DNA of 64,000 bases from Denitromonas halophila (GTDB lineage Bacteria; Pseudomonadota; Gammaproteobacteria; Burkholderiales; Rhodocyclaceae): the NCBI RefSeq assembly GCF_007625155.1, contig NZ_VMNK01000014.1:1-64000 (forward strand), in the 5' to 3' direction. The notes below the pieces were generated by a model. That model worked only from the letters and a program-made list of their open reading frames with translations, was not told the origin of the DNA and did not search any database. The position numbers and the translations under genes are program-made. Positions 6,038 to 39,856 of the stretch are shown in pieces (positions within the stretch are counted from its first letter, which is position 1; the number at the start of each line of letters is the position of its first letter).

Positions 6038-8536
6038 ATGGCGATCAATTACGATTCCGTGCTGAATCAGCTGCGCGGCCACGGCCTACTTGTTGATGCG
6101 TTTGAGGCGGACGGAAAAACCCATCGCTGCAAGATAGAAGGCTCGCGCGACAAGCCGGGATGGTATCTGCTGCGCGAGATCACGCTCGAGCGGGGCGACA
6201 AGGCAATCGTCGGTGCGTTCGGCGTTTGGCGCGGGACGGACAACGGATCGACCAAGGTCGACATGAAGTTGCCCGACCTGACGCCAGAGCAGAAAAAGGC
6301 GATCCGCGACCAGATGCGCGCCGACCAGAAGCGGGTCGAGGCGCAGCGGGCAGGGGAAGCTGCCCGTGCATCCAAGCGCGCCCGGGCGATGTGGTCAAAG
6401 CTTTCAGACCACGGCGAATGTGACTACCTGCCGCGCAAGGGTGTTGCTGGCCATGGCGTTCGCTACACGCCGACCGGTGCAATGGCTGTACCGATGATGG
6501 ACAACGCCGGCCAGGTTTGGGGGTTGCAGTTCATCCTCGGCGGAAAGTCGCACGCCAATCGGATCCAGCGCATCGGACGCGACAAGGAATATTGGCCAAA
6601 GGGCCACATCAAGCGCGGCCACTACCACCTTATCGGCCTGCCGATCTGGCTGTGCCTGGTGGCCGAAGGCTACGCCACCGCCGCCAGCCTGCATGAAGCC
6701 ACCGGCCTGCCGGTGGCGGTGGCGTTCGACGCCGGCAACATCGGCCCGGTGGTCGAGCAGTTGCGCGACCGTTTCCGCAGCGTCAAGTTCATCGTGTGCG
6801 CGGATGACGACCAGTTTGGCGGATGCCAATTCCGCGACGCCGCCGGCAAGCGCTGCAACCACCCCATCGACCTGTCCGACAACTCGCCAACCTGCCCGAG
6901 TTGCGGCAACGAGCACAAGGTGGGTAACGCCGGCACCACCTCCGCCGCCACCGCCGCCATGGCCTGCGCCGATCGCGTGCAGTGGATCAAACCCAAGTTC
7001 GCCGACCCCGACGCCCGCCGCGCCGCCTTCTTCGACAACGGCGGCAAGCTTTCAGATTTCAACGACCTCCATGCAACAGACGGCCTCGCCGCGGTACGCG
7101 ACCAAGTCGAAGCCGCGCTCCGTCAGTTCGGATGGGCGCCGCCGGCCCGCACGCCGCGGGCAATCGAAACCGAGGGGGGCGGGGATTCATCCGGCCGCCG
7201 CGGCGCCGTCTCCATGCTCGGGCTGGATGACATCGTTGATCGCTTCATTCACATCGACGACAACACCGGCGATTTTGTTTTCGACACCTGGACCAAGTGC
7301 GTCGTTAAGCGCACAAAGGTGGTCGCCATGCTGCCCCCGCGCATCCGGTGGGATCACGTCAAAGATCACCCCGTCTGGAACACACGGGCCGTCTATATCG
7401 ACCAAATCGGATTCGACCCCGCCGGCGAAGACGCCAACATTCTCTGCAACCGCTGGGACGGCTGGCCCACCAAGCCAGCCGAAGGCAGTTGCGAGCGCCT
7501 GCTCGAGCTGCTTGGCTACCTGTGCAGCGCCGAGCAAAACGGCGCCGAGGTCTATGAGTGGGTGCTGCGCTGGCTCGCCTACCCCATCCAGCACCCGGGC
7601 GCCAAGCTGCACAGCGCCATCGTCGTGCACGGCCCGCAAGGCACCGGCAAAAGCCGCTTCTTTGAAAGCTACGCCCGCATCTACGGCGACTACTCGCTCG
7701 TGCTCAACCAGGGCGCCATCGAAGACAAGTTCAACGCCGACTGGACCGAGCGCAAGCTGTTCATCGTCGCTGATGAGATCGTCGCCCGCTCCGACATGTA
7801 CCACCTCAAGAACCAACTCAAAGGGTTCATCACGGGCGAGTGGGTGCGGGTCAATCCAAAAAACGTGGCCGCGCACCGCGAGCGCAACCACATGAACCTC
7901 GTTTTTCTATCCAACGAAAAACAGCCCGTCGTGCTCGAAAACGACGACCGCCGCCACCTCGTCATCTGGACCCCGCCCGCGCTCAGCCGCGACTACTTCG
8001 ACGAGATCGACGCCGAGATCAACGCCGGCGGCATCGCCGCGCTGCACTCCTACCTGTTGCAGATCCCGCTCGGCGACTTCAAACCCTGGACGCGCCCACC
8101 CATGACGCGCTCAAAGCAGCAGCTCATCGACATCAACCGCGAATCCGTCGATCGCTTCCTGTCCGACTGGCAATCTGGCGACATCGACGGCCTGCCGTTC
8201 TGCCCCTGCGGCTCGTCCGACCTGTACGCCGCCTACCTCCAATGGTGCCGACGCGAGGGCGTCAAAGTCCCGCGCGAGTCAAACCAGTTCGGCGGGCACC
8301 TCGACAAGCTCCAAGGCTGGCAAAAAGGCCACCGCGACCGCTACACCACCTGCCACTACGACGGCGGCACCAAGCGCCAGCGCATGGTCATCCCGCCAGA
8401 CGAAGCCATGCGCACACCCCCCTGGAACGCCAAAGGGCCAGACGGCTACGCCAAGCCGCTCAACAAATCACAAACCCAGTGGCTCACCGACAGCTATTTC
8501 GCCTTCAATGTCGCCGTAACAGGGGGCCAGCCATGA
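6038..8536 (+). CDS. Phage primase-helicase (Toprim plus SF3-type ATPase)
   Basis: Encodes 832 residues from the ATG at 6038. The N-terminal half is a primase with a Toprim core: E210 in LVAEGYATAAS and D256-D258 in FIVCADDD. A zinc-ribbon insertion (C263, C273, C286, C289) directly follows the DDD motif. The C-terminal half is a DUF5906/D5-like helicase with Walker A GPQGTGKS (532-539) and Walker B LFIVADEI (D579). It should synthesise primers and unwind DNA at the phage origin, much as P4 alpha does. A heptamer array beginning six bases after its stop codon is the likely origin. Confidence 0.9.
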   Translation: MAINYDSVLNQLRGHGLLVDAFEADGKTHRCKIEGSRDKPGWYLLREITLERGDKAIVGAFGVWRGTDNGSTKVDMKLPDLTPEQKKAIRDQMRADQKRVEAQRAGEAARASKRARAMWSKLSDHGECDYLPRKGVAGHGVRYTPTGAMAVPMMDNAGQVWGLQFILGGKSHANRIQRIGRDKEYWPKGHIKRGHYHLIGLPIWLCLVAEGYATAASLHEATGLPVAVAFDAGNIGPVVEQLRDRFRSVKFIVCADDDQFGGCQFRDAAGKRCNHPIDLSDNSPTCPSCGNEHKVGNAGTTSAATAAMACADRVQWIKPKFADPDARRAAFFDNGGKLSDFNDLHATDGLAAVRDQVEAALRQFGWAPPARTPRAIETEGGGDSSGRRGAVSMLGLDDIVDRFIHIDDNTGDFVFDTWTKCVVKRTKVVAMLPPRIRWDHVKDHPVWNTRAVYIDQIGFDPAGEDANILCNRWDGWPTKPAEGSCERLLELLGYLCSAEQNGAEVYEWVLRWLAYPIQHPGAKLHSAIVVHGPQGTGKSRFFESYARIYGDYSLVLNQGAIEDKFNADWTERKLFIVADEIVARSDMYHLKNQLKGFITGEWVRVNPKNVAAHRERNHMNLVFLSNEKQPVVLENDDRRHLVIWTPPALSRDYFDEIDAEINAGGIAALHSYLLQIPLGDFKPWTRPPMTRSKQQLIDINRESVDRFLSDWQSGDIDGLPFCPCGSSDLYAAYLQWCRREGVKVPRESNQFGGHLDKLQGWQKGHRDRYTTCHYDGGTKRQRMVIPPDEAMRTPPWNAKGPDGYAKPLNKSQTQWLTDSYFAFNVAVTGGQP

Positions 8537-8541
8537 CCACC

Positions 8542-8766
8542 GCACGGGCTACCGCACGGGCTACCGCACGGGCAAACGGCCCGCAACCCCGCATAGCGCA
8601 CGGGGCGCACGGGCCGCACGGGCTACCCGCGCACGTACACGTATACACACACACGCATCCACACCACAAAAACACCTCTCCCGTGTACGTGAAACCTACC
8701 CGTGCGCCCCGTGCGCCCCGTGCGCTATGCGGCATGCAGGCGCAACAGGCGTGCGCTACCCCGTGC
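8542..8766. repeat. Heptamer array with large inverted repeat (candidate replication origin)
   Basis: Six GCACGGG copies (from 8542, 8554, 8566, 8598, 8607, 8616) and four CCCGTGC copies (from 8699, 8708, 8717, 8760). The first three are spaced 12 bp. Arms 8591-8622 and 8699-8730 are reverse complements with one mismatch in 32. A second pair nests inside: CACGTACAC (8632-8640) and GTGTACGTG (8683-8691). An A/C-rich loop with an ACACAC run lies between. A reading frame crosses the region but gives low-complexity peptide, so 8537-8829 is treated as non-coding. Confidence 0.65.
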
Positions 8767-8829
8767 GCCCACGTGCGCTCGCCTTCGCGCGCGCCTTTTC
8801 TCACACACCCCATTCATGGAAAAAAAGTG

Positions 8830-9132
8830 ATGGAAGAAAAAGCCCCCGCCTTCGAGCCGCTAAACATGGTCTGCGACGCCACCAACGCCCGCCAGTTCAA
8901 CGCCGCGGTGCGTCAGCACCTCCCAGAGTTCCACGATCTCGCCAAAGCCTTCCACGCCCGCGGCCTCATCCCCGGTCTGCGCGGTGCCCGCATCACCGAC
9001 ATCGCCACCGCCAAAGCTGAGCGCGCCGCCACCGCCCAATACCGCGCCGTCCCCGTCGTCAGCAACGCCAGCGTCGCCGAAGGGCTCAAGCGCTGGTACG
9101 CCGACGCCAAGCGCGCAACAGGGGGGCGATGA
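8830..9132 (+). CDS. Hypothetical phage protein next to candidate origin
   Basis: Encodes 100 residues from the ATG at 8830, preceded by GGAAAAAAAG. The frame is open far upstream, but the part before 8830 is a repetitive peptide from the heptamer array, so the shorter start is preferred. The product is helical (ARQFNAAVRQHLPEFHDLAK, then TAKAERAATAQYRAV). No family is recognised. It ends in an ATGA overlap with the next gene. Confidence 0.6.
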   Translation: MEEKAPAFEPLNMVCDATNARQFNAAVRQHLPEFHDLAKAFHARGLIPGLRGARITDIATAKAERAATAQYRAVPVVSNASVAEGLKRWYADAKRATGGR

Positions 9133-9365
9133 TCATGGAACTGAATCTCACCGCAGCCCACCTGGCGGGGTTTGTCTGCATGGTCTGGATCGGCGCCCAC
9201 TTCATCGGCGGCGCCAGGCTTGTGAGGTGGTGCTTGTGGGCGGGCATGTGGCAACTTACGACCGTCGTCATGCCTGCACATGTCGACATACCCGCGTGCG
9301 TTGCCCTGTTCGCGCTTTGCGAATACGCATTCGCAAAACTCACAGGGGGTCGCCGCCATGGCTGA
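9129..9365 (+). CDS. Small membrane protein
   Basis: Encodes 78 residues, mostly hydrophobic, with two to three predicted membrane segments (HLAGFVCMVWIGAHFIGGA; LVRWCLWAGMWQLTTVVM; PACVALFALCEYAFAKL). It overlaps the previous stop by ATGA; an ATG two codons later (9135) is an equally possible start. No family is recognised. It lies between replication and packaging modules, far from the lysis cassette, so a holin role is not favoured. Confidence 0.6.
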   Translation: MIMELNLTAAHLAGFVCMVWIGAHFIGGARLVRWCLWAGMWQLTTVVMPAHVDIPACVALFALCEYAFAKLTGGRRHG

Positions 9366-10203
9366 AATCATCAGCGTCACCGCCGACATCACCGCCGTCA
9401 CAAAACACCTCAACCTAACCCAGCGCAGCGTCGGCATTGCCACCCAGCGCGCCATTCTCAAAACCGGCCACAAAGGATCGGCAGCAATCCGGGCTGAAAT
9501 GTCGCGGGTATTCAAAAGCCCCACGCGATTCACCCTCAACTCATTCAAGGTTGTCAAAAGCAGAAAAGAGATCGCAGCCACAATCGAGCTCAAGGGGGTG
9601 CAGGGCATCCCGACCGATCGGCACGACTACCTAGACCCGCAGATACACGGCGGCCCCCGCCGCACCACGCCGTTCGAATACAAGATGCGCGCCATCGGCG
9701 CACTCCCTGCCGACCGCTTCATTGTGCCCGGCGCAGCCTGCCCGCTCGACGCCTACGGCAACATTCCGCGCGGCATGGTGCAGCAAGTGCTCTCGTACTT
9801 TGGTGCGGCCTCATACAAAGGCGTCGGCTTCGACGCCAACACCACCGACAAGTCGCGCAAAAAAATCGAGAAGAAACTCGGTAAACGCCTATTCGGGTTT
9901 GCCGGCGTGCGCGGGCAACTGCTCATCTATCGCGGCGGCGCCGACCGCGTTGCACGATCCCGCGCAGGCAAAGACGGCAGCGCCGTGCAATTCACCAGCC
10001 GGCTACCGCACCCCGGCATCTGGATACGCGCCGAGTTGTTCGGCGGCGACGCAATCCGCCCCCTGTTCATGTTCGTAAAGCAGCCGCGCTACAAAGCCCG
10101 CCTCGACTTCTACGGCGTTGCCCGCCGCACCGTCGAGCAGGAATTCCCCGGCGAGTTCAAGGCGGCCATCCAGATCGAACTCGACCGGATCGCAAACAAA
10201 TGA
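9358..10203 (+). CDS. Phage virion protein, possibly minor tail protein Z-like
   Basis: Encodes 281 residues from the ATG at 9358, with GGGGG upstream. The N-terminus (TQRAILKTGHKGSAAIRAEM) and the C-terminal helix (ARRTVEQEFPGEFKAAIQIE) loosely resemble lambda-type minor tail protein Z, whose two ends flank a variable basic middle. The middle here is rich in basic and beta residues (KSRKKIEKKLGKRLFGFAGV). The place before the terminase is unusual for a tail gene, so the name is tentative. It overlaps terS by ATGA. Confidence 0.45.
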   Translation: MAEIISVTADITAVTKHLNLTQRSVGIATQRAILKTGHKGSAAIRAEMSRVFKSPTRFTLNSFKVVKSRKEIAATIELKGVQGIPTDRHDYLDPQIHGGPRRTTPFEYKMRAIGALPADRFIVPGAACPLDAYGNIPRGMVQQVLSYFGAASYKGVGFDANTTDKSRKKIEKKLGKRLFGFAGVRGQLLIYRGGADRVARSRAGKDGSAVQFTSRLPHPGIWIRAELFGGDAIRPLFMFVKQPRYKARLDFYGVARRTVEQEFPGEFKAAIQIELDRIANK

Positions 10204-10733
10204 CCGAAACCTGCACCCGCAAAGAATTCGCCGCCCGTATGGGCTGGCGATCGGCCGGCCAGGTTAGCAACCTGATCCGCGACGGACTCATCAAACTCAC
10301 CGACGACGGCAAGCTTGTGTGCGTGGCTGAATCCATCGCCGCCATCGAAGCCGCCCGCGACCCATCAAAACAAGGCGTCCGCGACCGCCACGCCGCAGCG
10401 CGCGGCGAAGGCGGGCAGGGCGCCGCGCCGGAAGATCGCGCCGACTACCACGCCGCCCGAGCCAAAAAAGAGCATTACGCCAGCCTCACCGCCGAAGCCG
10501 ACTACCGCGCCCGCATCGGCCAACTCATGGAATCGGCCGACGTGCACGCCACCGTCGCCGATGCCATGGTCACCCTGCGCGGCGCGCTAGAAACCCTGCC
10601 CGACGTGCTCGCCCCGCAGGTGGCAGCCATGACCGACGAGCAAGCCTGCCGCACCACGATGGCAGATCACATCGAAACCGCGCTGGCTGAATGCGCCAGG
10701 CGGTTCGAAAAACTGAAAGGAGAGGGGTTGTGA
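10200..10733 (+). CDS. Terminase small subunit (Nu1-like)
   Basis: Encodes 177 residues. The N-terminal winged-helix HTH (CTRKEFAARMGWRSAGQVSN) would bind the packaging site. A central charged helix follows (DYHAARAKKEHYASLTAEAD), then a C-terminal helical region (MVTLRGALETLPDVLAPQVA) typical of Nu1-type subunits that contact the large subunit. It overlaps genes at both ends (ATGA and TGATG). The large subunit follows one small gene later. The combination with a GpA-type large subunit suggests cos-type packaging, though no cos site was identified. Confidence 0.85.
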   Translation: MTETCTRKEFAARMGWRSAGQVSNLIRDGLIKLTDDGKLVCVAESIAAIEAARDPSKQGVRDRHAAARGEGGQGAAPEDRADYHAARAKKEHYASLTAEADYRARIGQLMESADVHATVADAMVTLRGALETLPDVLAPQVAAMTDEQACRTTMADHIETALAECARRFEKLKGEGL

Positions 10734-10948
10734 TGGCGTCTGATTACGCGGAAAGCGTTGAAAACATGAAGGCTTGCATGCTTAAAGGGACCGAGTCTGA
10801 GTGCGAGCAGGCTATAGGCTTGTTGCGTTGTTTGGCCCAAGATGCCGGCGCGCAAACGAAGACTGGTCGGCGCCTCGCCGACATGGCGAGAAAAGCAGAG
10901 CAAATCGGAGTAGAGCGTTTTGGTATCAACTTCGGCCTACCGTTCTGA
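10733..10948 (+). CDS. Hypothetical protein between the terminase genes
   Basis: Encodes 71 residues; the ATG overlaps the terS stop (TGATG). The product is helical with several cysteines (ENMKACMLKG, SECEQAIGLLRCLAQ) and ends QIGVERFGINFGLPF. No family is recognised. It lies in the packaging operon between TerS and TerL and may be an inserted accessory gene; it overlaps nothing essential. Confidence 0.55.
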   Translation: MASDYAESVENMKACMLKGTESECEQAIGLLRCLAQDAGAQTKTGRRLADMARKAEQIGVERFGINFGLPF

Positions 10949-10949
10949 T

Positions 10950-12866
10950 ATGACCACCCCCGCCACCACCCTCTACGCCACCGCCGCCCGCGCCATTGCG
11001 CCGCGCAAGCCGCTCACTGTTTCCGAGTGGGCCGACAAGCACCGCGTGCTATCGGCCAAGGGCAGCGCAGAGGCCGGGCGGTGGCGAACCGATCGAAACC
11101 CCCCGCTGCGCGAGCCGATGGACTGCATGAGCGCGCGCAGCCCGGTGCGCGAGGCCGCGCTAATGTTCCCGATCCAGTTCGGCAAGACAGAGGTCGAGGC
11201 CAACGCCCTTGGCTACACCATGTGCGAAGTCGGCGGCCCGATCATGGTCTGCCTGCCCGGCGAAGTGTCCATGAACAAGTGGGTCAATCAAAAGCTAGGC
11301 CCAATGCTCGAAACATCCCCCGCCGTGCGCGCCATGCTCAGCAGCACCAAAAGCCGCGACAGCGCGAACCAGCGAGAATTCAAGGATTTCGCCGGCGGCC
11401 AACTTTACCTCGAGCATGCCGGCAGCCCGTCGCGCCTAAAATCCACCAGCGTGCGCACTTTGCTGGTCGACGAAGAAGACGAGTTCGCCGCAAACCTCAC
11501 CACCGGCGACGACCCCGGCGACCTGCTCGACGGACGCACCAGCGCGTTCCCAGCCACCAGTCGTCGCATGTACATCAGCACCCCGACCATCGAAGGCCAC
11601 AGCCGCATCGCCGCCCGCTACGCCGCCAGCGACCGCCGCCGCTACCACATTGCCTGCCCCCACTGCGACCACGAGCAGCACCTCCAGTGGTCCGGCCTGC
11701 ACTGGCGAAAGAACACCGCCGGCGAAGTTGCCGCCGCCTGGTACGTTTGCAACGATTGCGGAGCCCTTATCGACGAGCACCACAAAACCGACATGATCCG
11801 CCGAGGCCGCTGGGTGCCAGAAAACCCAGGCGCCCGCGTGCGCGGCTACCACATCAACTGCCTCTACTACCAGATCGGCCTCGGCCCGCGCTGGGCAGAA
11901 CTCGCACAGAAGTGGCTTGACGCCCAGGGCGACCCCGCCAAGCTCAAAACCTTCATCAACGATCGCCTCGCCGAAACTTTCGACGACCCCGCCCTGCGCG
12001 CCGTCAAGCACAACCTCATCGCCGATCGCGCCGAGCCCTACCGCCTGCGCACCGCGCCGGCCGGCGTGCTCGTGCTAACCGCCGGGGTGGATACCCAAGA
12101 CGACCGCCTCGAAGTGCAAATTGTTGGTTGGGGCCGCGGCATGCGCCGTTGGGTGCTCGACTACGCCGTACTCCCCGGCGACCCCGCCGGCGACGACGTA
12201 TGGATTGCCCTCACCGAACTGCTCAACCGCCCCATACAGCACGAATCTGGCGCGCTGCTCAGCGTGCAAGCCACCTGCATCGACGCCGGCGGCCACCGCA
12301 CCGAGCACGTCTACCACTGGGTGCGCCAACGCAAAGTGCGCCGCCCGACCGCCACCTTTGGCGCCAAGCACAACAACGCCCCTGTGCTCAGCAAAGGCAC
12401 GCTCGTCGACGTCACCTGGCGCGGCCAAACCGACAAGCGCGGCCTGCGCATCCATCACGTCGGCACCGTTGGCATCAAACACCACTTCTACAGCCTGCTC
12501 AGCAAAGACGCCGACCTAGACACAATCGACCGTCAATGCCATTTCTCCGACGACCTGCCGCCCGAGTATTTCGCCGGCCTGGTCAGCGAACGCTACAACC
12601 CCAGCAAAAACCGATTCGACAAACCCCGCGGCGCCCGCAACGAGCCGCTCGACACCATCACCTACGCCTACGCCGCCACCCACCACCCCGAGCTGCGCCT
12701 GCACCGATACACCAACGCCGATTGGGACCGCCTCGAGCGCGCCCTAACGGCCGCGACGCAAAACACCACGCCGGACGCAACACCAACCACAGAGGCGCCA
12801 CAAGAGCAGCCCGCCACCCAAATTCCAACCCGCCGCCGAGGACGCCGGGTCTATGGAGCGCGATAG
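10950..12866 (+). CDS. Terminase large subunit (GpA family)
   Basis: Encodes 638 residues from the ATG at 10950. The N-terminal part has the GpA-type ATPase: the P-loop-like MFPIQFGKTEVEANALGY and Walker B LLVDEEDEF. A zinc-ribbon-like pair CPHCDHEQH and CNDCGALIDE follows. The C-terminal nuclease domain begins at LTAGVDTQDDRLEVQIVGWG with its first catalytic Asp. It translocates and cuts concatemeric DNA during head filling, with the Nu1-like subunit upstream. Length and order are normal for the family. Confidence 0.95.
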   Translation: MTTPATTLYATAARAIAPRKPLTVSEWADKHRVLSAKGSAEAGRWRTDRNPPLREPMDCMSARSPVREAALMFPIQFGKTEVEANALGYTMCEVGGPIMVCLPGEVSMNKWVNQKLGPMLETSPAVRAMLSSTKSRDSANQREFKDFAGGQLYLEHAGSPSRLKSTSVRTLLVDEEDEFAANLTTGDDPGDLLDGRTSAFPATSRRMYISTPTIEGHSRIAARYAASDRRRYHIACPHCDHEQHLQWSGLHWRKNTAGEVAAAWYVCNDCGALIDEHHKTDMIRRGRWVPENPGARVRGYHINCLYYQIGLGPRWAELAQKWLDAQGDPAKLKTFINDRLAETFDDPALRAVKHNLIADRAEPYRLRTAPAGVLVLTAGVDTQDDRLEVQIVGWGRGMRRWVLDYAVLPGDPAGDDVWIALTELLNRPIQHESGALLSVQATCIDAGGHRTEHVYHWVRQRKVRRPTATFGAKHNNAPVLSKGTLVDVTWRGQTDKRGLRIHHVGTVGIKHHFYSLLSKDADLDTIDRQCHFSDDLPPEYFAGLVSERYNPSKNRFDKPRGARNEPLDTITYAYAATHHPELRLHRYTNADWDRLERALTAATQNTTPDATPTTEAPQEQPATQIPTRRRGRRVYGAR

Positions 12867-39130: not shown

Positions 39131-39206
<76 letters not shown>

Positions 39207-39214
39207 AAGAACAG

Positions 39215-39290
39215 GTCCCTATCGTCTAGAGGCCTAGGACACCGCCCTTTCACGGCGGCGACCGGGGTTCGAATCCCCGTAGGGACGCCA
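39215..39290 (+). tRNA. tRNA-Glu(TTC), copy 1
   Basis: 76 bases with CCA. Acceptor GTCCCTA/TAGGGAC; anticodon TTC in CCGCCCTTTCACGGCGG; T-loop GGGGTTCGAATCCCC. Eight bases after tRNA-Ala. Confidence 0.97.
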
Positions 39291-39298
39291 AGTTGCAA

Positions 39299-39328
39299 AA
39301 AGGCTGCCAGAGAAGTTTGGCAGCCTTT
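39299..39328 (+). other. Hairpin between tRNA-Glu and tRNA-Asp (also 39714-39737)
   Basis: AAAGGCTGCCA (39299-39309) pairs perfectly with TGGCAGCCTTT (39318-39328); the sequence after is GATTT. The same hairpin with slightly shorter arms is present in the second copy at 39714-39737. It may be a leaky terminator or an RNase processing site that sets the ratio of tRNA-Asp to the first two tRNAs. Confidence 0.6.
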
Positions 39329-39367
39329 GATTTGGCCGGTGGCACCGGCCAAGACACCGAAAGGTGT

Positions 39368-39444
39368 GGAGTGGTAGTTCAGTTGGTTAGAATACCGGCC
39401 TGTCACGCCGGGGGTCGCGGGTTCGAGTCCCGTCCACTCCGCCA
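39368..39444 (+). tRNA. tRNA-Asp(GTC), copy 1
   Basis: 77 bases with CCA. Acceptor GGAGTGG/CCACTCC; anticodon GTC in CCGGCCTGTCACGCCGG. No T-run terminator follows before the second promoter. Confidence 0.97.
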
Positions 39445-39498
39445 GATTTAATGCAGTTGTTTAGACGACAACTGCAATGAGCAACAGGTGAAAGTTGC

Positions 39499-39527
39499 TT
39501 GATTGGGAGTCGTAAGCAGGCTAGAAT
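39499..39527 (+). promoter_or_regulatory. tRNA operon promoter 2
   Basis: TTGATT (39499-39504) and TAGAAT (39522-39527), spacer 17 bp, upstream of the second Ala-Glu-Asp set. The sequence CGCTCTTTC after it is shared with the first copy. Confidence 0.7.
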
Positions 39528-39540
39528 GTCACGCTCTTTC

Positions 39541-39616
<76 letters not shown>

Positions 39617-39626
39617 AAGAAACAAG

Positions 39627-39702
39627 GTCCCTATCGTCTAGAGGCCTAGGACACCGCCCTTTCACGGCGGCGACCGGGGTTCGAATCCCCGTAGGGACGC
39701 CA
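39627..39702 (+). tRNA. tRNA-Glu(TTC), copy 2
   Basis: Identical to 39215-39290; the spacer from tRNA-Ala is two bases longer than in copy 1. Confidence 0.97.
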
Positions 39703-39779
39703 AGTTGTACGGAGGCTGCCAGAGAAGTTTGGCAGCCTTTGATTTGGCCGGTGGCACCGGTCAAGACACCGAAAGGTGT

Positions 39780-39856
39780 GGAGTGGTAGTTCAGTTGGTT
39801 AGAATACCGGCCTGTCACGCCGGGGGTCGCGGGTTCGAGTCCCGTCCACTCCGCCA
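39780..39856 (+). tRNA. tRNA-Asp(GTC), copy 2
   Basis: Identical to 39368-39444. Followed within ten bases by a strong terminator. Confidence 0.97.

What the first reader, a model, noticed from the sequence alone, without database searches (positions are those of the whole stretch)
8542..8766. Ten-copy heptamer array in a large inverted repeat next to the primase-helicase: candidate origin
Six GCACGGG and four CCCGTGC heptamers occur within 225 bp. The array contains 32-bp arms with one mismatch and a nested 9-bp pair around an A/C-rich loop. In satellite phage P4 the alpha primase-helicase binds short repeats at its origin; an analogous system is likely here, with unusually GC-rich iterons and hairpin-forming potential.
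Basis: partly seen in the sequence, partly recalled or inferred. Interest (0 to 1): 0.7.

Follow-up and report, generated by a model that had tools for sequence, protein, structure and literature searches.

The report
Phage replication origin with changeable repeats
Just behind its primase-helicase gene this prophage carries a symmetric set of short repeats that is very probably its replication origin; related phages keep the layout but use different repeat words, which follow the predicted DNA-reading end of the enzyme.

Summary
The array is real: 6 CGCACGGG and 4 inverted copies directly 3' of the primase-helicase gene. Among 106 non-redundant loci (the window's included) the same place holds a comparable array: mean symmetric 6-mer score 10.1, 2,120 shuffles at most 6, 102 of 106 above every other window of their locus. 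Layout is conserved: direct repeats, a purine/pyrimidine-alternating centre, inverted repeats. The word is not: 33 clusters among 96 loci. Word similarity tracks the primase's C-terminal domain (rho 0.35) and not its first 380 residues (rho about 0). In a second family one word is shared by proteins with unlike primase halves but 70-81% identical C-termini. The layout resembles the PICI origin; I read it as a PICI-type origin in full-length temperate phages. Unexpectedly, the array lies in a stop-free frame entered from a codon overlapping the primase stop (75 of 106 loci, against 18 and 10 for the other frames), often with a ribosome-binding site, without codon-position constraint: the origin appears to be translated. 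No wet-lab evidence; linkage explains part of the covariation.

The parts
6038..8536 (+). Primase-helicase (832 aa from ATG 6038; 840 aa from GTG 6014): Toprim, then DUF5906/VapE-like helicase domain, then C-terminal domain
8114..8533 (+). Primase residues 701-840, variable C-terminal domain that co-varies with the repeat word
8279..8392 (+). Residues 756-793: predicted recognition helix (756-765) and wing strands (770-777, 786-793)
   Evidence: AlphaFold2 models; covariation peak 761-800
8521..8526 (+). AGGGGG, SD-like site for the frame that enters the array
8533..9132 (+). Stop-free frame (199 codons) starting at ATG 8533 that overlaps the primase stop (ATGA), crossing the whole array and continuing into ORF 8830-9132
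8541..8572 (+). Left outer block: 3 iterons CGCACGGG, spacing 12
8597..8622 (+). Left inner block: 3 iterons, spacing 9
8628..8658 (.). 31-nt run of alternating purine/pyrimidine in the centre between the half-arrays
   Evidence: family-wide
8699..8724 (-). Right inner block: 3 inverted iterons, spacing 9
8760..8777 (-). Right outer block: 1 perfect and one 1-mismatch inverted iteron (weaker than in many relatives)
10200..10733 (+). Terminase small subunit (control gene; 1.4 kb downstream of the array here, nearer in most relatives)

Best explanation
The array is the cis-acting replication origin of this prophage. The primase-helicase made from the gene just upstream binds the roughly 9-bp iterons through its C-terminal winged-helix-like domain; the two inverted half-arrays load SF3 helicase rings in opposite directions around the central segment, the rings open the DNA, and the Toprim primase domain starts host-polymerase replication in both directions. 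Shown here: position, conserved layout, changing words, covariation of word with C-terminal domain. Inferred: binding, ring loading, melting, bidirectional start. Each phage lineage has its own word, so related phages, and satellites with such origins, should mostly not fire one another's origin (inference). The array is also crossed by an open frame coupled to the primase stop, so ribosomes probably run through it; I infer that this protects the operon from Rho-dependent termination and couples translation to the next gene.
For: Null test: 106 non-redundant loci mean 10.1 (range 5-14); 2,120 shuffles at most 6; 2,751 other 300-bp windows at most 9. Layout: mean 5.5 forward and 5.3 inverted copies, spacings mostly 9 and 12, central gap median 83 bp (96 loci). 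Covariation in 85 full-length proteins: rho -0.016 (residues 1-200), 0.025 (201-380), 0.288 (381-510), 0.266 (511-700), 0.353 (701-840; 0 of 2,000 permutations); peak 0.357 at 761-800 although mean identity there is 0.26. Partial rho for the primase C-terminus given the TerS HTH 0.315, reverse 0.111 (83 loci). Natural chimeras: 53 pAN-type loci and 23 loci that match pAN only from about residue 362-382 on share at least 6 TGTGTYGGG copies each (76 of 76) and 70-81% identical C-termini (72 sampled pairs); Pfam finds PriCT-2 and Toprim in pAN and L163, Prim-Pol in L221 and L233. Structure: pLDDT 90.8; top Foldseek hits NrS-1 primase C-terminal region, then SaPI5 PriRep1, poxvirus E5/D5 and ASFV PrimPol. 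The PICI origin region of EcCICFT073 shows a similar four-block dyad (9 of 11 TCTACC copies fit).
Against: No replication, binding or marker-frequency data. C-terminal domain and array are neighbours, so part of the covariation is linkage: residues 381-700 and the TerS HTH also correlate, and where TerS is within 450 nt (51 loci) TerS HTH (0.271) equals the primase C-terminus (0.274). The strongest single residue-to-base couplings lie outside the C-terminal domain (residues 416, 587, 621). Four of 106 loci (L006, L111, L128, L140) do not beat their own background. More distant relatives BPP-1 and RHph_X2_30 have no such array after the primase. In the pAN family the last block is direct, not inverted. 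Foldseek of the isolated C-terminal domain gave no hit at E <= 0.001. The window's centre is 53% GC and its spacers 66-67% GC, so there is no AT-rich melting region between the blocks.
Confidence: 0.85

Rival explanations
1. The array is a packaging (cos/pac) site bound by the small terminase, whose gene follows it in most relatives, as R sites of cosB are bound by TerS in lambda.
For: A TerS-like match lies within 3.6 kb downstream in 95 of 96 loci, median offset 316 nt; TerS HTH similarity correlates with word similarity (rho 0.209, 0 of 1,000 permutations; 0.271 in the near subset, equal to the primase C-terminus).
Against: Partial correlation over all 83 loci favours the primase C-terminus (0.315 against 0.111). 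Pairs exist with similar TerS and different words (L120/L162: TerS 0.75, word similarity 0.08) and with different TerS and the same word (L021/L120: TerS 0.29, word 0.96). Arrays also follow the primase where TerS is not adjacent: 2.9 kb away in H4907, and in pAN of the P27 family at the record's start, about 2.4 kb from the primase stop if the record ends are joined.
Confidence: 0.06
2. The array is a coding repeat: codons of a small repetitive protein read from ATG 8533, not a DNA element.
For: Stop-free frame in 75 of 106 loci; SD-like site in 37 of 59 open loci with ATG/GTG/TTG against 7.4 expected; S1 gp2 is annotated there.
Against: Repeats are inverted in the second half, so one frame encodes unrelated peptides; GC at codon positions is flat (0.56/0.55/0.55 against 0.60/0.40/0.78 in the primase); pairwise substitutions in the pAN group are flat (1413/1699/1577 against 2113/848/10425 in the primase; counts not independent).
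Confidence: 0.03
3. The array is an operator, partition or copy-control site bound by the primase-helicase or a small phage protein, with the true origin elsewhere.
For: Iterons can serve control as well as initiation (general knowledge); P4 has both crr, directly 3' of alpha, and a separate ori (record annotation).
Against: PICI regions with a similar layout were tested for plasmid maintenance and are described as functional origins (PMC6092414, passages). In 102 of 106 loci no other 300-bp window scores as high; loci hold at most 12.6 kb (S1 22.4 kb), so a distant site is not excluded.
Confidence: 0.1
4. The inverted repeat acts as an RNA hairpin (terminator, attenuator or structured RNA).
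For: 34-nt arms, 97% complementary; after masking iterons the longest left/right inverted repeat is still above shuffle on average over 96 loci (7.39 against 5.43).
Against: No Rfam match at gathering threshold in the array; outside iterons the window keeps only 5 bp of perfect pairing; the frame across the array is kept free of stops in most loci.
Confidence: 0.03

Closest known systems
PICI/SaPI pri-rep-ori origins (e.g. EcCICFT073; SaPI Rep)
   Same: Iteron sets immediately 3' of the initiator gene, flanking a centre; in EcCICFT073 TCTACC lies F16,25 / F93,104,113 / R144,155 / R223,232 after the primase gene, with two copies off this pattern (F177, R71); SaPI Rep recognises its origin through its C-terminal domain (PMC7581432, passages); structural match to SaPI5 PriRep1.
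   Different: Here in phages with their own terminase and portal genes; centre of about 83 bp is purine/pyrimidine-alternating and not AT-rich on average; array crossed by a coupled open frame, which in EcCICFT073 soon meets a stop (by eye). [quoted passage not shown]
Satellite phage P4 alpha protein with ori and crr
   Same: Primase-helicase that binds origin repeats through a winged-helix domain (PMC4234260, passages); crr iterons lie directly 3' of alpha in both orientations (record annotation).
   Different: crr is two 120-bp direct copies, with a separate ori about 4.5 kb away and a terminator annotated after alpha; no single dyad with four blocks.
Lambda ori in gene O
   Same: Iteron origin inside translated DNA (PMC7466680, passages).
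   Different: There the frame is the initiator's own coding sequence; here it is a separate frame with no detectable protein-level constraint.
pRN1 plasmid stem-loop origin 3' of orf904
   Same: Essential element 3' of a primase-helicase gene, low sequence but conserved structural layout (PMC4234260, passages).
   Different: No iterons reported there; BPP-1, which that paper calls nearly identical to the phage BIP-1 it analysed, has no iteron array here.

Membership tests
PICI-type pri-rep-ori origin | Origin immediately 3' of the replication initiator gene | tested here: met
   first iteron starts 5 nt after the primase stop; arrays right after the stop in relatives
PICI-type pri-rep-ori origin | Two sets of iterons flanking a melting region | tested here: met
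   two sets around a centre in 96 loci and in EcCICFT073; that the centre melts is untested
PICI-type pri-rep-ori origin | Central region AT-rich | tested here: not met
   mean GC of 15-nt bins from 90 to 180 is 0.57-0.63 over 106 loci; lowest bin 0.45 at 195-210, in the right arm; window centre 0.53; Mcat1 centre is AT-rich by eye
PICI-type pri-rep-ori origin | Initiator C-terminal domain determines iteron specificity | tested here: inconclusive
   covariation and natural chimeras support it, linkage is a confounder; no binding assay
PICI (the mobile element itself) | Satellite without a full set of virion genes | tested here: not met
   own TerS, TerL, portal and endolysin
P4 alpha/ori system | Toprim primase, helicase and C-terminal DNA-binding domain in one protein | tested here: met
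   winged-helix assignment of the last domain rests on model topology, Foldseek not significant
P4 alpha/ori system | Separate ori and duplicated 120-bp crr | tested here: not met
   single array after the primase, no 120-bp duplication in 8400-8900; P4 layout
cos site (lambda cosB) | Terminase small subunit binds the repeats | tested here: inconclusive
   weaker covariation than primase overall, equal in the near subset; TerS not adjacent in H4907 and pAN
Replication origin | Supports autonomous replication in cis | not testable with these tools
   needs plasmid or marker-frequency experiment

The most novel reading that the evidence does not exclude
A widespread phage origin type in which geometry is fixed but the word is free: lineages keep re-pairing a hypervariable C-terminal reading domain with a new 9-bp word, giving dozens of mutually private origins. 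In most members the origin is threaded by ribosomes through an open frame kept free of stops yet under no detectable protein-level selection, i.e. a translated origin whose peptide does not matter.
Probability: 0.5. Interest if true: 0.8.

Novelty: new variant of a known kind. Interest (0 to 1): 0.63.

Why it matters
[quoted passage not shown] Private words would explain how related phages and satellites coexist without firing each other's origin. An origin kept translatable without protein constraint, if confirmed, links phage operon translation to replication control.

Tried and rejected
Rfam at gathering threshold and a DNA search of the array in named phages (12 records, best E 0.3) gave nothing. 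tblastn of the primase in named phages matched 542 records, of which 2 (both S1) cover 80% or more; in plasmids 4,049 records, none covering 80%, the 20 listed covering 39-43%. BPP-1 and RHph_X2_30 have no array after the primase, so the pRN1 paper's phage stem-loop is not this element. Position-by-residue mutual information: recognition helix and wing have the highest mean z (4.7 and 4.1), but the strongest single pairs lie at residues 416, 587 and 621, so clade structure dominates; suggestive only. The AT-rich centre expected from PICIs is absent. Foldseek of the isolated C-terminal domain gave no significant hit; several weak ones are winged-helix proteins (my reading of the titles). A profile search of solved structures gave NrS-1 primase (E 2.7e-24) and only weakly SaPI5's protein (0.032). 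Paper searches showed no description of this array in phages in the listings I saw; the library holds only open-licence papers. Passages read: PMC6092414, PMC7581432, PMC4234260, PMC7466680, PMC2647930, PMC7924643; other papers seen as listings only.

Rows dropped: of 78 loci are cut before the primase end (L053, L055, L078) and 5 are duplicates. Of 80 loci, I took 37 (contigs new to me, picked by eye); one was too short (L151) and one a duplicate (L142). With S1 this makes 106. Of 80 loci, 4 are cut (L187, L201, L208, L218). The covariation used 96 of 106 loci (word score 7 or more) and 85 of these 96 (full-length); word clusters depend on the threshold (5, 22, 33 and 42 at 0.6, 0.7, 0.75 and 0.8).

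Full report
WHAT IS THERE. The finding is confirmed. Six CGCACGGG copies (8541-8622) and four inverted copies (8699-8767), with a fifth at one mismatch (8770-8777), begin 5 nt after the stop of the primase-helicase gene. Between the halves lies a centre with a 31-nt run of strictly alternating purine and pyrimidine (8628-8658). The gene encodes a Toprim domain and a DUF5906/VapE-like helicase domain and ends in a further C-terminal domain; it best matches the primase family phrog_2249. Downstream are TerS (10200-10733), GpA-type TerL (10920-12866), portal and endolysin, so this is a phage with its own packaging genes, not a satellite.

RELATIVES. Relatives of the primase were fetched from viral and genome contigs. 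In 73 non-duplicate loci looked at first (S1, H4907 and pAN included) the best 6-mer after the primase stop occurs 5 to 15 times. On an enlarged set of 106 non-redundant loci, one of them the window's own, the symmetric 6-mer score averages 10.1 (5-14); 2,120 dinucleotide shuffles reach at most 6 and 2,751 other 300-bp windows of the same loci at most 9; 102 of 106 loci exceed all their own other windows, and L006, L111, L128 and L140 do not.

LAYOUT FIXED, WORD FREE. In the 96 loci with a clear word (score 7 or more) there are on average 5.5 forward and 5.3 inverted copies, spacings mostly 9 and 12, and a central gap of median 83 bp. The centre alternates purine and pyrimidine: longest run 17.7 on average against 6.9 after shuffling and 7.0 in either arm, 106 loci. 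The word itself differs: single linkage at similarity above 0.75 gives 33 clusters (22 at 0.7, 42 at 0.8), for example GCGCACGGG, AACCACGCC, GGTTACGCA, TGTTCAGGG, TGTCACGCC, TTGCAGGGG. The window's core CGCACGGG occurs three or more times forward in 7 of the 105 other loci: L005, L010, L042, L067, L069, L094, L098.

WHO READS THE WORD. Over 85 full-length primases, word similarity is unrelated to identity in residues 1-200 (rho -0.016; 1,392 of 2,000 permutations reach it) and 201-380 (0.025; 380 of 2,000), and related to 381-510 (0.288), 511-700 (0.266) and 701-840 (0.353), each with 0 of 2,000. The sliding peak is 761-800 (0.357; partial 0.230) where mean identity is only 0.26. Because this domain is next to the array, linkage must contribute. 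As a control on the other side, TerS gives 0.174 and its HTH 0.209 in 83 loci; in the 51 loci with TerS within 450 nt the TerS HTH reaches 0.271, as much as the primase C-terminus at 0.274. Partial correlations over the 83 separate them: primase C-terminus given TerS HTH 0.315, TerS HTH given primase C-terminus 0.111. L007 and L120 are 81% identical over the first 380 residues, have different words, and are 32% identical at 741-820. At the level of single residues clade structure dominates: helix and wing have the highest mean coupling (z 4.7 and 4.1) but the strongest pairs are at residues 416, 587 and 621.

NATURAL CHIMERAS. Relatives of the pAN protein (76 of 80 usable) fall into two sets: 53 loci (L163-L219) that match pAN from its N-terminal half on where the contig is long enough, and 23 (L220-L242) that match only from about residue 362-382 on although their frame continues upstream in the 11 of 23 inspected. 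Pfam finds PriCT-2 and Toprim in pAN itself and in L163, and Prim-Pol in L221 and L233; the other members were not scanned. The C-terminal 145 residues are 70-81% identical between the sets (72 sampled pairs), and all 76 carry at least six TGTGTYGGG copies. So the word stays with the C-terminal half when the primase half is exchanged. pAN's terminase small subunit is of the P27 family at the start of the record; the array is near the record's end, with lysis and HNH genes between if the ends are joined, which speaks against a packaging site. In this family the last block is direct rather than inverted.

STRUCTURE. AlphaFold2 of residues 441-840 has mean pLDDT 90.8; of the last 145 residues, 89.3. 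Both show helix 756-765 followed by strands 770-777 and 786-793, a winged-helix-like order, at the covariation peak. The C-terminal domain alone has no match at E <= 0.001.

KNOWN SYSTEMS. PICI origins lie immediately 3' of rep with two iteron sets flanking an AT-rich region; [quoted passage not shown] SaPI Rep reads its origin through its C-terminal domain (PMC7581432, passages). The same word search on the EcCICFT073 region gave a similar four-block dyad, 9 of 11 TCTACC copies in pattern. P4 crr also lies directly 3' of alpha. The present element therefore works like a PICI-type origin; it differs by host element, centre composition and the feature below.

THE TRANSLATED FRAME. The frame entered by a codon overlapping the primase stop is open through 250 nt in 75 of 106 loci, against 10 and 18 for the other two forward frames and 14, 7 and 6 on the minus strand. 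The overlapping codon is ATG in 58, CTG in 22, GTG in 10, TTG in 2 and a non-start in 14; openness over 240 nt is 59 of 70 with ATG/GTG/TTG and 16 of 36 otherwise. SD-like sites precede it in 37 of 59 open loci with ATG/GTG/TTG (7.4 expected), 8 of 16 other open loci (2.1 expected) and 5 of 31 non-open loci (4.2 expected). Of 62 loci whose frame ends 220-345 nt after the primase stop, 33 end on an (A/G)TGA overlap with the next start; background 25%. All 76 pAN-family loci have ATGA; 74 have the first stop at 326-341 nt, one has none in the stretch read and one stops at 149. Yet GC by codon position is flat and so are pairwise substitutions by codon position. Hence translation is probably real and the peptide probably irrelevant. 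In the window the frame is 8533-9132 with AGGGGG at 8521-8526; 31 of 106 loci lack the open frame, so it is not essential to the type. Polarity protection and coupling to the next gene are my inference.

LIMITS. Everything is comparative; word calling uses exact 6-mers; host and induction state are unknown; loci hold at most 12.6 kb (S1 22.4 kb), so a second, distant origin is not excluded. The window starts at the contig's first base, so the prophage's left end may be missing.

Noticed in passing
window 39131-39856: A tRNA-Ala/Glu/Asp cluster occurs twice in tandem, about 410 bp apart.
   Followed up: no
L085 2454-2804: Stenotrophomonas phage S1 gp2 'hypothetical protein' is the open frame across its origin-like array.
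   Followed up: partly
L247 4826-5150: Moraxella phage Mcat1 has a weaker related array (TGTGCAGGG-like, symmetric score 6) with a centre that is AT-rich by eye instead of purine/pyrimidine-alternating.
   Followed up: partly
L244 1-1378: Bordetella phage BPP-1 has no such array 3' of its primase; a convergent gene follows.
   Followed up: yes
window 9129-10203: Chain of ATGA overlaps continues downstream (9129/9132 and 10200/10203), and ORF 9280-10203 matches a 'minor tail protein' family although it lies between primase and terminase.
   Followed up: no
G000:C28:62112-62819: A distant second homologue of primase residues 459-693 (28% identity) elsewhere in the same genome.
   Followed up: no
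L249 4291-4590: P4 crr iterons lie directly 3' of alpha in mixed orientation, the same relative place as these arrays.
   Followed up: partly
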